Positions 26,496-31,180 of a stretch of 64,000 nt of DNA are shown one piece after another. Both the position numbers and the translations under genes were made by a program. A model generated the notes under the pieces. That model was not told the origin of the DNA, did no database searches, and saw only the letters and a program-made list of their open reading frames with translations. The stretch comes from Bacillus gobiensis (lineage in GTDB: Bacteria > Bacillota > Bacilli > Bacillales > Bacillaceae): positions 1,116,190-1,180,189 of the forward strand of contig NZ_CP012600.1 in NCBI RefSeq assembly GCF_001278705.1, written 5' to 3'. Numbering within the stretch: position 1 is the first letter of the stretch; the number at the start of each line of letters is the position of its first letter.

Positions 26496-26533
26496 AACCG
26501 GTGTTCCATAATAAATGGAATGCCGGCTTTTTA
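26496..26533 (+). terminator. Terminator of mutSL
   Basis: Near-perfect 15-bp stem AAACCGGTGTTCCAT / ATGGAATGCCGGCTT followed by T. Confidence 0.88.
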
Positions 26534-26570
26534 GCGTAGAAGGAATACTTGAATGTCTTAATCAAAAATC

Positions 26571-26600
26571 TTGACATCCATAATTTTTTTCAATTAGAAT
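26571..26600 (+). promoter_or_regulatory. Sigma-A promoter of the exporter leader
   Basis: Consensus TTGACA (26571-26576), 18-bp spacer, TAGAAT (26595-26600). Predicts transcription about 280 nt ahead of the exporter start codon. Confidence 0.65.
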
Positions 26601-26606
26601 AAAGTG

Positions 26607-26820
26607 AAAAAAGTACATGTTTTATTGAAAATCTGTGCTTTTATGGATATTTCAAAGCATAAAACGTCCTTAGAGTTTGTGCTTTTTCCTATTCAGAAAA
26701 CAAAAAATATGATTCTATTTCTGAAATAGGATTGTTGAAGCACATGGAAGCTTGTCTGCTTTATTAAGTATGTGTTGATCATGACCCCTTATTGAAGAAA
26801 ATAGATAGGGGGTTTTTGTC
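26607..26820 (+). promoter_or_regulatory. Structured leader with internal terminator (putative attenuator)
   Basis: No gene longer than a few codons. In order: a minimal reading frame M-F-Y-stop (26617-26628) close to the predicted transcript start; a stem TTTTATG/CATAAAA (26639-26645 with 26658-26664); a long stem CCTATTCAGAAA / TTTCTGAAATAGG (26688-26699 with 26718-26730); then a terminator-like hairpin CCCC...GGGG ending in GTTTTTGTCTTTT (26785-26824). This arrangement ahead of a drug exporter resembles translation-sensing attenuators. Confidence 0.5.
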
Positions 26821-26887
26821 TTTTAGTTAGAAACGAAGGCATGAAATAATCGATTGATTTTTATGATAAAATTGTTGGAGGAACTGT

Positions 26888-28324
26888 ATGGAACAAAAGA
26901 TTAATTCAAGAGCGATTCTTATTACATTTATGATTGGCGCATTTTTTGCAATATTAAATGAAACCTTGCTGAATATTGCATTAACTGAGCTCATGGCAGT
27001 ATTTAATATCGATGCGCCTACTGTTCAATGGCTGGCAACTGGATTTATGCTCGTTATGGGAGTTTTAATGCCGATCTCTGCAATATTAATTCAATGGTTT
27101 ACTACGAGGCAAATGTTTATCGGAGTTATGACAGTTTTTTTGATTGGGACAGTTATTGCTGCTTGTGCTGTCAATTTTCCGATGTTGTTAACTGGGCGGA
27201 TGATTCAAGCAGTTGGTACCGGATTGTTAATACCGATTATTATGAATGCTTTGCTTTTACTTTATCGCCCTGAAGTTCGCGGGAAAATCATGGGAACATT
27301 TGGGTTAGTTATTATGTTTGCTCCGGCGATCGGCCCGACCCTGTCCGGTGTGATCGTTGACTTATTAGGCTGGCGCTGGTTATTTATCACCGTCATTCCT
27401 TTTGCTGTATTCTCCATCTTATTTGCCATGAAATATTTGAAAAACGTTGGAGAGGTTACTCGCCCTAGTGTAGATGTTTTATCGATTATTTTATCTTCCA
27501 TCGGGATTGGGGGAATCATCTACGGATTCAGCAGCGTTGGAGAGGATCCGGAAGGTTTTCGATCACTAACGATCATTTCAGTTCTGTTAGTCAGCTTCAT
27601 CAGTTTATTGCTTTTCGTCATACGGCAATTGAAGTTAGATGAGCCATTATTAGATGTCCGGGTATTTAAATATAAAAACTATTCAAAAGGTATTGCTCTT
27701 TTTATCATCGTCATCATGGCAATGTTTGCATCTGAAATTGTGATGCCGATGTATCTGCAGGGGCCGCTCGGATATTCTGCTAAGCTCGCAGGTCTTGTGC
27801 TGCTGCCGGGAGCGTTATTAAACGGCTTAATGTCACCATTAATGGGTACTTTATTCGATAAATATGGACCAAGGAAGCTAATGATACCTGGTTCTATTGT
27901 TTTGGTCGGGGTCATGCTGTTTTTTAGCAACATTAATCCTTCGATCCAGGTTTGGTCGTTTATCATTGCATACATCTTATTAATGCTGTCGATTTCAGCG
28001 ATGATGATGCCTGCCCAAACGAATGCATTAAATGAATTACCTAAGAAATTATATCCGCATGGGACGGCAATTGCGAATACATTACAACCCGTCGCAGGTG
28101 CACTTGGTGTTTCGATCTTTGTAAGCATTATGACCCAGAGCAGAAAAAGTTTCTTAGAAGGTCAATCAGCTCCGGTAAGCGAGCAGATTCAAAATGAAGC
28201 GATGACACAAGGGGTGCACCATGCTTATTGGTTTGCATTAGCCTTATGTGTGACAGCTTTAATCATTTCACTATTTGTTAAAAAGGCGTTTGCACCAGAT
28301 TATGATCAAGAGAGTGAAAACTAA
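26888..28324 (+). CDS. LmrB-like DHA2 multidrug exporter (MFS)
   Basis: 478 residues with about 14 hydrophobic segments, proton-drug antiporter of the DHA2 branch. Motif-like segments: NETLLNIALTEL (helix 1), TGRMIQAVGTGLLIP, MFAPAIGPTLSG (motif C of exporters), LLPGALLNGLMSPLMG. Close in pattern to B. subtilis LmrB (lincomycin/puromycin efflux). TTGGAGG ribosome site, long leader upstream, single-gene unit with its own terminator. The exact drug cannot be read from sequence. Confidence 0.88.
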   Translation: MEQKINSRAILITFMIGAFFAILNETLLNIALTELMAVFNIDAPTVQWLATGFMLVMGVLMPISAILIQWFTTRQMFIGVMTVFLIGTVIAACAVNFPMLLTGRMIQAVGTGLLIPIIMNALLLLYRPEVRGKIMGTFGLVIMFAPAIGPTLSGVIVDLLGWRWLFITVIPFAVFSILFAMKYLKNVGEVTRPSVDVLSIILSSIGIGGIIYGFSSVGEDPEGFRSLTIISVLLVSFISLLLFVIRQLKLDEPLLDVRVFKYKNYSKGIALFIIVIMAMFASEIVMPMYLQGPLGYSAKLAGLVLLPGALLNGLMSPLMGTLFDKYGPRKLMIPGSIVLVGVMLFFSNINPSIQVWSFIIAYILLMLSISAMMMPAQTNALNELPKKLYPHGTAIANTLQPVAGALGVSIFVSIMTQSRKSFLEGQSAPVSEQIQNEAMTQGVHHAYWFALALCVTALIISLFVKKAFAPDYDQESEN

Positions 28325-28391: not shown

Positions 28392-28420
28392 TTGCTTCAA
28401 CTCTATATTTATTATATACT
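28392..28420 (+). promoter_or_regulatory. Sigma-A promoter of the GntR/ABC operon
   Basis: TTGCTT (28392-28397), 17-bp spacer, TATACT (28415-28420). Confidence 0.6.
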
Positions 28421-28463
28421 ACATTACAACACTAATGCACTATGCCAGGGAGGGGGACTGACT

Positions 28464-28850
28464 TTGATCCCTAATACAGATGATACAAAACCAATTTATA
28501 TTCAAATTTCTGAATGGCTTGAAACAGAAATATTGAACGGCAATTTTTCCAGTGATCAAAAGGTTTATTCCCAGTACCAGCTGGCAGAGATGTTTACAAT
28601 AAATCCGGCGACTGCAGCAAAAGGACTAAATATACTGGCTGATGAAAATATTTTATACAAGAAGAGAGGGCTCGGTATGTTTGTAACGGCTGATGCAAAG
28701 AAATTGATTGTGACGAAACGAAAAGAGCAGCATTTGAAGCGGCTTGTGTGGGAAGTCGTGTTGGAAGCCCGCAGATTGCAGGTATGTGAAGATGAACTGC
28801 TGCAAATGATTCAAAAAGCAAGAGCAGAAAGTGAGGAGGATGGAAAATGA
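28464..28850 (+). CDS. GntR-family (YtrA type) transcriptional regulator
   Basis: 128 residues. N-terminal winged helix (PIYIQISEWLETEILNG, YSQYQLAEMFTINPATAAKGL) with only a short C-terminal helix, the layout of YtrA-type GntR repressors that control the ABC operon they belong to. TTG 28464 chosen after GGGAGGGGGA. The stop overlaps the ABC ATPase start (ATGA). Probably autoregulatory; effector unknown. Confidence 0.85.
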   Translation: MIPNTDDTKPIYIQISEWLETEILNGNFSSDQKVYSQYQLAEMFTINPATAAKGLNILADENILYKKRGLGMFVTADAKKLIVTKRKEQHLKRLVWEVVLEARRLQVCEDELLQMIQKARAESEEDGK

Positions 28851-29749
28851 ATGTTGTTGAATGTACACAACTATCAAAATCCTACGGCAATAAAAAAGCC
28901 TTGAATAACATATCGTTTCACATTCGTGAGAATTCGATAACTGGCTTGATCGGGCGAAATGGCGCTGGAAAAACAACTCTTTTGAAGCTTTTAGCAGGGT
29001 TGTCAAGAGAGACGTCCGGAGAGGTGAAAGTTTTTTCAGAACGACCATTTAATAATTTGAAAGTTTCGATGAATACGATATTTGTAGATGAGGATATCAA
29101 TCTGCCCGATTCGTTAAATCTTACGGAAATATTAGAAGAAATGAAGAGATTTTATCCAAACTGGGACATGGATCTGGCGAATCGGCTATTTTCCTATTTT
29201 TCTTTTCATCCTATGCAAAAATATGACAGTCTTTCAAAAGGAATGAGAAGCACGTACAACATGATAATCGGGCTATCAGCACGCTGTGCATTGACGATAT
29301 TTGATGAACCCACAACGGGAATGGACTCTGCTGCTCGGAAGGATTTCTACAAGGCGCTGCTTAAGGATTATCTTGATCATCCCCGAACGATTATTATTTC
29401 GAACCACCATCTGCATGAAATGGAGGCTGTTCTTGAGGATATCCTGCTGATCAAAAACGGCAGAAACTATTTACATATGCCCGTGGCTGAGTTAAAGGAA
29501 TTGGCGATCGGAATCAAAGGAAAGGAAGAAACCATTAATAGATGGACGGTAAATAGTGAAATATTTTATCGGAAAAGAATAGGAACGAATAGTGAATATC
29601 TCGCTGTTAAAAATGAATGGTCAGAGGCAGAATTGCAGCGAGCCAAAATAGAGGGACTCGACTTTACAGCTGTCGATCTAGCTGATCTTTGCGAATACTT
29701 GACAGATGAAGCAAAAGGGGGAATTGATGATGTCTTTAGCAAACGCTAG
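28847..29749 (+). CDS. ABC transporter ATP-binding protein
   Basis: 300 residues. Walker A GRNGAGKTT (about 36-44), degenerate signature (SLSKGMRS), Walker B LTIFDEPTTGMD, and NHHLHEME switch. The C-terminal 80 residues are an extra domain. Of the YtrB/YhcH type that pairs with separate permeases; likely exports lipophilic drugs, peptides or other envelope-active compounds. Overlaps both neighbours, so tightly coupled. Confidence 0.9.
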   Translation: MNVVECTQLSKSYGNKKALNNISFHIRENSITGLIGRNGAGKTTLLKLLAGLSRETSGEVKVFSERPFNNLKVSMNTIFVDEDINLPDSLNLTEILEEMKRFYPNWDMDLANRLFSYFSFHPMQKYDSLSKGMRSTYNMIIGLSARCALTIFDEPTTGMDSAARKDFYKALLKDYLDHPRTIIISNHHLHEMEAVLEDILLIKNGRNYLHMPVAELKELAIGIKGKEETINRWTVNSEIFYRKRIGTNSEYLAVKNEWSEAELQRAKIEGLDFTAVDLADLCEYLTDEAKGGIDDVFSKR

Positions 29750-30476
29750 ATTAGCAGAAGTGGTAAAAAAGCAATACTTATATAAGTTGAAATCCTATTC
29801 AAATGTTTTTAGCTCGCTTGTTATGGTTCAGATGATTGCAATCCTCATGTCATTTGGATCTACCTCGTCATCTGGAAGCAGCACTAGTACGATTGATTTA
29901 ACGGTGAATAAATACTCATCAGATGTAATCATTGCGTTTACGCTGCTTTGGGGATTTATCAGCGCAATCATCATTACAACAAAAGCGTATAGATACGATG
30001 ATTTTACGTTTGTCAGCAACCGGATCAGCAGCCACTTATCGAATATTTTATTTTTGCTGACAGCAAGCATTATCGGAGGGGCATGCGGGATTCTTTCAGG
30101 TTTTTTGCAAAAGGTTCTGATGTATTTTTTTGATTATTCGATTATTAGAGAATATAGTCATCTGGCATCTCCTTCAGAATTGCTTCTTGGCATAATAATG
30201 ACAACACTGTATGTGTTTTTCTTTTCTGCGTTCGGCTACGTGATTGGTTATCTTGTTCAAATTCACAAGCTTTTTATTGCAACTGTGCCTGTATTTTTAC
30301 TAGGTTCAATGTTTATCAGCGCAGAGCAAGGTAATGAAGGATGGATAGTCCGCTTTTTTGAATATTACTTTCTTGAACCTTCAGTTTTCATATTTTTTCT
30401 GAAAATCATCGGAACGGTAGCTATTCTCTATACGATAACGATTCTTATGTCAGATAAATTGGATGTGAGAACTTAA
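29727..30476 (+). CDS. ABC transporter permease
   Basis: About 249 residues with six hydrophobic segments (for example IIAFTLLWGFISAIIIT, LFIATVPVFLLGSMFI). ATG 29727 with AAAGGGGG upstream; an ATG directly after it (29730) is equally possible. Overlaps the ATPase gene by 23 bp and the next gene by 1 bp. Confidence 0.85.
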   Translation: MMSLANARLAEVVKKQYLYKLKSYSNVFSSLVMVQMIAILMSFGSTSSSGSSTSTIDLTVNKYSSDVIIAFTLLWGFISAIIITTKAYRYDDFTFVSNRISSHLSNILFLLTASIIGGACGILSGFLQKVLMYFFDYSIIREYSHLASPSELLLGIIMTTLYVFFFSAFGYVIGYLVQIHKLFIATVPVFLLGSMFISAEQGNEGWIVRFFEYYFLEPSVFIFFLKIIGTVAILYTITILMSDKLDVRT

Positions 30477-31180
30477 TGTTAGCACTAATACAAATCATTC
30501 CTTTTCTCATTATTTTGTTAATTTTGTTACTTATCTTTCGGCGAAAAAAAGCAATCACCAGAGGAAAATATGTGAGCCTGAAAAGAACGTATTGGATTTT
30601 TGCAAGCTATGTTGCCGCCTTGCTCGTATCCGTTCTTTTGTTTTATATGCTGCCTGAAAAAAGCCCAGCAGTTGGAGGGAAAGTTCAACCCGAAACAGCT
30701 AACAAAGAGTTAAGAGAATTTGACAATTTAGTACATGACGGCAGGCTTGGAGATATTGATCCCCGATATAAAAAGAAGCAGTGGAAGTTTCAGTATCAAT
30801 TGAAGCAGCTCAACATTGAAGGGTATATAGATCCGTCAATAGTGATCGAAAGAAAACAAGGCACAGATGGAACGATAGAAGCGATATATTTTGCAACAGA
30901 TACAATCTTGGAAGGTTTTAAAATAAGCAAACTCCCTTCAGTCAACGTTCGTTTAAACGAAGAAAGCTTGATAATTGACAGCCCTGAGCCAATACAAATT
31001 GAACTTGGCCTATACAGCAAAGAATTTCCAATCAGGCAGTTTACAGACGAGCAATTCATGGGAGAGAGCAAGGAAGATGGGTCGACCTTCACCCCTATGG
31101 AAGTTATCTATTTGCGTGTCCCTAAAGATCTAGAAATAACTGGAGCTTCTGACATGGATATCACCTATATAAACAAGTAG
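30476..31180 (+). CDS. Membrane protein of the ABC operon, function unknown
   Basis: 234 residues. Two N-terminal membrane segments (about 3-20 and 38-58) around a short basic loop, then a soluble domain of about 170 residues outside the membrane with many beta-strands and no motif I recognise. ATG overlaps the permease stop (TAATG). Probably an accessory subunit of the transporter. Confidence 0.78.
   Translation: MLALIQIIPFLIILLILLLIFRRKKAITRGKYVSLKRTYWIFASYVAALLVSVLLFYMLPEKSPAVGGKVQPETANKELREFDNLVHDGRLGDIDPRYKKKQWKFQYQLKQLNIEGYIDPSIVIERKQGTDGTIEAIYFATDTILEGFKISKLPSVNVRLNEESLIIDSPEPIQIELGLYSKEFPIRQFTDEQFMGESKEDGSTFTPMEVIYLRVPKDLEITGASDMDITYINK

What the first reader, a model, noticed from the sequence alone, without database searches (positions are those of the whole stretch)
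26571..26888. Possible antibiotic-sensing transcription attenuator ahead of an LmrB-like exporter
A consensus-type promoter starts an RNA of about 280 nt before the exporter. The leader has a minimal frame M-F-Y-stop near its 5' end, two clear stem-loops (one with a second short frame, M-I-L-F-L-K-stop, running through its 3' arm) and a terminator-like hairpin with T-run 60 nt before the gene. Leaders of this kind upstream of resistance genes can work by ribosome stalling on a tiny frame that opens an antiterminator. I know of no description of this leader.
Basis: partly seen in the sequence, partly recalled or inferred. Interest (0 to 1): 0.72.

Follow-up and report, generated by a model that had tools for sequence, protein, structure and literature searches.

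The report
Truncated drug-sensing RNA leader before exporter
The stretch before this drug-exporter gene is a shortened member of a widespread family of RNA switches thought to turn on antibiotic-resistance genes when a drug stalls a ribosome; this copy seems to have lost its sensing part, while its relatives suggest a two-step version of the switch.

Summary
The leader is real. It aligns with leaders of four related genes (0 of 300 shuffles score as high for each). A covariance model of the first hairpin of such leaders matches 80 of 397 genomes of the order. Of 89 places examined, 86 carry a three-codon uORF whose stop lies in the 5' arm; 82 of 89 precede ABC-F, MFS, LmrB-like, Vgb or Vat genes. 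The antiterminator pairing covaries. The B. subtilis vmlR leader (Rfam ncr1575), experimentally lincomycin-responsive, belongs to the family, so the kind is known. New here, as far as eight paper searches show: the range of genes, a translational version, and a two-hairpin relay. The window's copy derives from the relay type but lacks the uORF's Shine-Dalgarno stretch and the core of hairpin 1; in folding tests it does not switch. I predict attenuation with little or no drug response. An apparently intact sibling precedes a Vga-type ABC-F gene in the same genome. No expression data were available.

The parts
26571..26600 (+). promoter-like site TTGACA-18-TAGAAT
   Evidence: 11 of 12; TTGAC aligned in 5 of 5 leaders
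26607..26617 (+). outer 5' strand of stem 1 (what is left of arm A)
26617..26628 (+). three-codon uORF M-F-Y-stop, without the Shine-Dalgarno stretch found before it in relatives
   Evidence: 85 of 86 family uORFs have an SD-like sequence
26633..26644 (+). outer 3' strand of stem 1 (what is left of arm B)
26683..26699 (+). arm C, 5' arm of hairpin 2
26718..26733 (+). arm D, 3' arm of hairpin 2; 11 of 13 positions complementary to arm F
26784..26817 (+). intrinsic terminator, arms F and G and U-run
   Evidence: -14.2 kcal/mol
26888..28324 (+). LmrB-like DHA2 exporter, 478 aa
   Evidence: TIGR00711 323.4 bits (cut-off 230.2); LmrB model 478.6 bits (cut-off 800, not reached)
26498..26526 (+). terminator-like hairpin after mutL, separating the leader from the gene before it

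Best explanation
The leader is a truncated member of the vmlR-type ribosome-stalling transcription attenuators. In intact members a ribosome starts a three-codon uORF whose stop codon and following bases are arm A of hairpin 1. If it passes, A pairs with B, terminator arms F and G pair, and transcription stops. If a drug holds the ribosome on the uORF, A is covered, B pairs with F, the terminator cannot form and the resistance gene is made. In the two-hairpin relay form, freed B takes C, C lets go of D, and D takes F. The window's leader comes from the relay form but has lost the uORF's Shine-Dalgarno stretch and the inner arms of hairpin 1; C:D and the terminator remain, so I predict steady attenuation of the exporter with some leak and little or no drug induction through this uORF. 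Shown here by computation: homology, missing stretches, complementarity and covariation in the family. Shown by others: lincomycin induction of vmlR and of the Rli53-controlled gene. Inferred: drug response of the other members, the relay, the locked state of this copy.
For: Alignment with four relatives, scores 66.5-101.5 against shuffle maxima 51.5-85, 0 of 300 each (for L032 the margin is small, 88 against 85). About 20 and about 59 alignment columns absent. Own-genome R1 match of the leader at 29.6 bits, E 0.0147. Family: 80 of 397 genomes, uORF in 86 of 89, antiterminator covariation, switching on masking in 61 of 79. In the window C:D goes 0.65 to 0.77 and D:F 0.10 to 0.01 on masking. 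vmlR leaders match R1 without having been used for it, and the Rfam model of the vmlR leader overlaps three MFS leaders found by R1.
Against: 29.6 bits is in the range where some hits are probably false (L225, 28.5 bits), so membership rests on the alignment, not on the model. Equilibrium folding ignores co-transcriptional order and pausing. No expression data. M-F-Y-stop and the terminator have been kept, which pure decay would not favour. Masking the loop of hairpin 1 also raised the antiterminator in 24 of 78 leaders. 72 of 80 exporter relatives lack the leader motifs.
Confidence: 0.62

Rival explanations
1. The window's leader is still a working drug-responsive attenuator: a ribosome stalled on M-F-Y opens stem 1, and a rearrangement not captured by equilibrium folding, or RNA polymerase pausing, allows read-through.
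For: The uORF frame, stem 1, hairpin 2 and terminator are all present; arm D can still pair with F over 11 of 13 positions. Pausing matters for vmlR (PMC9226507, passages).
Against: No Shine-Dalgarno stretch before the uORF against 85 of 86 in the family; no switch in folding (0.32 to 0.44 by the cruder measure).
Confidence: 0.2
2. The leader is a neutral leftover and the exporter is controlled otherwise, by a DNA-binding regulator or a promoter downstream of the terminator.
For: 72 of 80 relatives of the exporter lack the leader motifs, so the gene can do without.
Against: One search lists no promoter-like site between the terminator and the gene; the terminator and promoter are kept.
Confidence: 0.13
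3. A metabolite- or drug-binding riboswitch rather than a ribosome-stalling attenuator.
For: Structured, terminator-controlled leader ahead of a transporter.
Against: Three-codon uORF in 86 of 89 family places, resistance genes of different folds downstream, no Rfam cut-off reached by the window, and vmlR works through its uORF (PMC9226507, passages).
Confidence: 0.02

Closest known systems
B. subtilis vmlR leader, Rfam RF02452 (ncr1575)
   Same: Three-codon uORF (M-I-N) with SD, first hairpin holding it, antiterminator strand, terminator; matched by R1 (27.6-31.2 bits in L237, L241, L245). Lincomycin induction needs the uORF start codon and SD (PMC9226507, passages). vmlR recognised here by the reported AUGAUUAAC and AGAAGGG, not by a protein scan.
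   Different: One hairpin before the terminator arm rather than the relay; different sequence of arm F. The window lacks SD and inner arms and does not match RF02452.
Listeria Rli53, leader of lmo0919 (Rfam RF01481)
   Same: Attenuation by lincomycin-stalled ribosomes on a three-amino-acid ORF (PMC8079631, passages). L214 matches RF01481 weakly: 38.7 bits, cut-off 70, E 1.8e-4.
   Different: Below cut-off, one of 12 loci in that call; the Listeria leader itself was not fetched or aligned.
vmlR2, cplR and lsaA leaders
   Same: Short uORFs MK[L/Q], MR[I/M], MAGN before ABC-F genes; cplR leader tested (PMC10201436, section 20 read; passages). The ABC-F group here has mostly MKY and MKF (30 of 39).
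   Different: Their sequences were not compared here; the paper's text as seen does not mention other resistance genes sharing the leader.
bmrCD leader of B. subtilis
   Same: Ribosome-mediated transcriptional attenuation ahead of a drug exporter (PMC4191407, title and start of abstract in a listing).
   Different: ABC exporter; leader not compared here.

Membership tests
vmlR-type three-codon-uORF attenuators (R1 family) | homology of the leader to members | tested here: met
   alignment, 0 of 300 shuffles for each of four relatives; R1 29.6 bits, E 0.0147
vmlR-type three-codon-uORF attenuators (R1 family) | uORF of three codons | tested here: met
   M-F-Y-stop, 26617-26628
vmlR-type three-codon-uORF attenuators (R1 family) | Shine-Dalgarno sequence before the uORF | tested here: not met
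   absent in the window; present in 85 of 86
vmlR-type three-codon-uORF attenuators (R1 family) | inner arms of hairpin 1 (A with the stop codon, and B) | tested here: not met
   about 59 alignment columns absent
vmlR-type three-codon-uORF attenuators (R1 family) | antiterminator strand freed when the uORF is covered | tested here: not met
   D:F 0.10 to 0.01; 61 of 79 others rise by more than 0.3
vmlR-type three-codon-uORF attenuators (R1 family) | terminator before the gene | tested here: met
   -14.2 kcal/mol with U-run
vmlR-type three-codon-uORF attenuators (R1 family) | drug-dependent read-through | not testable with these tools
   no expression data
Rfam RF02452 (ncr1575) | score at or above the gathering cut-off | tested here: not met
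   window: none; 26540-26900 at E up to 10: not among nine weak matches
Rfam RF01481 (rli53) | score at or above the gathering cut-off | tested here: not met
   L214 only weakly, below cut-off

The most novel reading that the evidence does not exclude
Bacillales use one RNA cassette, a three-codon-uORF drug sensor, before unrelated resistance genes (ABC-F, DHA2 and other MFS exporters, Vat, Vgb), and have lengthened it into a two-stage relay: the stalled ribosome frees B, B takes C, C releases D, and D opens the terminator. Adding a whole hairpin keeps the sign of the switch. The window's copy is a relay that lost its first stage and is therefore locked.
Probability: 0.5. Interest if true: 0.7.

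Novelty: new variant of a known kind. Interest (0 to 1): 0.52.

Why it matters
It ties described leaders (vmlR/ncr1575, and weakly Rli53) to many for which I found no description, and predicts from DNA which exporters, acetyltransferases and lyases in Bacillales are switched on by ribosome-targeting drugs. The relay would be a clear case of chained RNA strand exchange. The window's copy is a natural test of what remains when the sensor is lost while an apparently intact sibling guards an ABC-F gene in the same cell.

Tried and rejected
Rfam on the whole window (nothing) and on 26540-26900 at E up to 10 (nine weak matches below cut-off). The second frame M-I-L-F-L-K: set aside (no SD seen, frame not kept in 4 aligned relatives). 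Plasmid collection, distant mode, window and L138 leaders: no match. A first folding measure (arm F paired with anything upstream) was noisy: rise above 0.3 in ABC-F 28 of 38, LmrB-like 1 of 5, MFS 8 of 23, Vgb 0 of 3, Vat 1 of 1, MFS2 1 of 2, others 0 of 3; I replaced it by arm-specific pairing, so the better result is the second measure tried. One search flagged 8 of 80 leaders as two-hairpin by spacing; I checked six arm by arm, L146 and L220 not; one search called L188 and L222 double by a looser rule, which I do not use. Of 26 places listed I followed L115, L116 and L126 and did not examine the others. Of the 92 rows I used 87: dropped were four opposite-strand matches inside leaders already listed and the window's own; with L115 and L126 that makes 89. 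One search used 80 of 89: L115, L158, L178, L223, L225 gave no T-run hairpin by my script, L126 and L218 only weak ones, L224 and L228 no two- or three-codon uORF. A4 holds ten secondary matches (opposite strand or second hairpin) among 102 and is fitted to the model, so I rest.

Full report
What was checked. The window lies in a 4.6 Mb single-contig genome (G000). Its GTDB genus includes genomes whose contig lengths equal those of B. haynesii (405,374) and B. paralicheniformis (110,274) records. The leader sits between a terminator-like hairpin after mutL (26498-26526) and a DHA2 exporter at 26888-28324. The exporter passes TIGR00711 (323.4 bits) but not the LmrB cut-off (478.6 of 800): 'LmrB-like' is fair, the substrate is untested.

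Relatives. A scan of named genomes kept the best 80 of 217 relatives. Eight of the 80 (L032, L037, L038, L041, L052, L056, L066, L089) carry both leader motifs upstream; the window's own copy does not match these strict motifs. The eight leaders share a uORF ATG-x-x-TAA running into UCCUAUU or UCCUGUU, a partner strand, and a terminator beginning CCUCCU. A pattern search in 44 genomes of the genus listed 26 places; the three I followed were one in the window's own genome ahead of a Vga-type ABC-F gene (L116/L139; best solved relative 7nhl, a lincosamide-streptogramin A resistance protein) and two ahead of Vgb-like lyases (L115, L126).

Family. A covariance model of hairpin 1 (R1, 9 sequences) matched 80 of 397 genomes of the order, 48 of 135 genera, at E up to 0.1, G000 included; in the phylum sample 3 of 398 at E up to 0.01, G000 included. 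The other two precede a Vat-like and Vgb-like gene pair (L261) and an MFS gene resembling L183 (L262) (named by resemblance, not scanned). Of 89 places examined 88 had a downstream ORF of at least 150 aa: ABC-F 40, MFS of TIGR00900 type 29, Vgb 5, LmrB-like 4, Vat 2, a Tet-like MFS 2, singletons 6. Groups are BLAST clusters named from one or two scanned members: ABC-F and Vat pass curated cut-offs; the TIGR00900-type MFS, Tet-like MFS and Vgb members do not. L142, a singleton, has a transposase-like ORF (by eye) between leader and exporter. L224, L225 and L228 are probably false.

Anatomy. 86 of 89 places have three codons before the stop by script; the stop is TAA in 82 of 86; residue 2 is I in 41 and K in 35. 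An SD-like sequence precedes 85 of 86 (81 by a stricter pattern). R1 itself scores these bases, so the proportions are partly selected. The stop codon is part of arm A. In 80 leaders A:B pairs in 94.9% of cells, but it hardly varies and covaries little beyond shuffles (5 cells changed on both sides, 47 of 1000 shuffles as high). Antiterminator B (or D):F pairs in 89.8% (shuffle maximum 85.0; slid versions 34.5-53.2%), with A-U/G-C exchange at one pair (40 and 34 leaders) and U-A/A-U at another (31 and 26); 86 cells change on both sides against a shuffle maximum of 50. The number of pairs with such a change is not unusual (7; 179 of 1000 shuffles as high), and pair types only modestly so (27 of 1000). 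With 59 distinct rows: 66 cells against a maximum of 39 (all). Changes follow gene families, so independent events are fewer than cells. The outer stem also covaries, on an alignment fitted to the model.

Mechanism. RNA ending just after arm F was folded free and with the uORF region held unpaired. The antiterminator probability rose by more than 0.3 in 61 of 79 leaders: ABC-F 35 of 36, LmrB-like 5 of 5, MFS 15 of 28 (8 of 28 already above 0.4 when free), Vat 2 of 2, Vgb 1 of 3, second MFS 1 of 2, others 2 of 3. Controls: masking 28 nt downstream did so in 3 of 79; masking the hairpin-1 loop in 24 of 78, so that control is not clean. In L115 and L126 my script found no, or only a very weak, T-run hairpin; the CCUCCU arm pairs instead with the gene's SD, whose pairing falls from 0.72 to 0.44 and 0.37 on masking: a translational version.

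Relay. Six leaders (L138, L139, L141, L142, L143, L173) have two hairpins, with A:B, B:C, C:D and D:F complementary over 8-15 positions. On masking, B:C ends at 0.67-0.87 and D:F rises from 0.00-0.03 to 0.55-0.82 in the six. L141 and L173 are less tidy: when free, A pairs with D (0.47, 0.84) and B with C (0.51, 0.86). B and F can also pair directly (8-13 positions), so a direct route is not excluded. The sign of the switch is the same with one hairpin or two.

The window. Aligned with relay leaders it lacks about 20 columns holding the uORF's SD and about 59 columns from the uORF stop to the end of arm B. Local alignment scores exceed all 300 shuffles for L041, L032, L052 and L139; for L032 narrowly (88 against 85). 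In folding, C:D stays formed (0.65 free, 0.77 masked) and D:F does not form (0.10, 0.01). I therefore expect steady termination with some leak. This is inference.

Known relatives. Leaders with uORF M-I-N before 542-545 aa ABC-F ORFs in B. subtilis-type genomes (taken as vmlR from the reported AUGAUUAAC and AGAAGGG) match R1 although not used for it; L237 reaches the cut-off of Rfam RF02452, which also rings in the B. subtilis control. RF02452 is over its cut-off in 95 of 397 genomes of the order and, below cut-off, overlaps three MFS leaders found by R1 (58.1 bits at L149, 54.3 at L184, 43.5 at L150). In gathering scans of 39 other loci no leader but L237's reached a cut-off; L199's does (148 bits). 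L214 weakly matches RF01481, rli53. For vmlR, induction by lincomycin needs the uORF start codon and SD (PMC9226507, passages); for Rli53, stalling on a three-amino-acid ORF is reported (PMC8079631, passages, citing Dar et al. 2016, which is not held). In eight paper searches I saw nothing listed on this leader before LmrB-like, Vat or Vgb genes or on a relay; the library lacks most subscription journals, listings were capped, and I read passages and one section.

Verdict. Known in kind, wider in range than I found described. The window's own copy is best read as a relay attenuator that has lost its sensor; the family around it is the more interesting result.

Noticed in passing
L116 / L139 (G000:C1:234386-234487): Apparently intact relay-type leader (uORF M-K-F) in the window's own genome, ahead of a Vga-type ABC-F gene of 525 aa starting with TTG.
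   Followed up: yes
L115 1487-1697; L126 minus strand from 1536: Same hairpin 1 before Vgb-like genes, where the terminator seems replaced by a hairpin that covers the gene's Shine-Dalgarno sequence.
   Followed up: partly
L261, minus strand, 1593 down to 3: R1 match outside the order ahead of a Vat-like gene followed by a Vgb-like gene (named by resemblance).
   Followed up: no
L142 from 1501 (G045:C1:3658138): A transposase-like ORF of 157 aa (by eye) lies between the leader and the exporter gene.
   Followed up: no
L138 2584-2649: Rfam Bacillaceae-1 RNA (52.7 bits) on the strand opposite to the leader.
   Followed up: no
L032, hairpin 2 (about 2803-2815): A second three-codon frame, M-L-F-stop, in the second hairpin (by eye); the window has M-I-L-F-L-K-stop there.
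   Followed up: no
L035, L040, L044, L051, L090 upstream of the exporter: Bacillus licheniformis-group relatives of the exporter have a different upstream region, with a shared stretch near TATAGTTGCCAATC (by eye).
   Followed up: no
window 28392-31180: Downstream ORFs that read like a GntR-type regulator, an ABC-transporter ATPase and two further proteins (by eye, not scanned).
   Followed up: no
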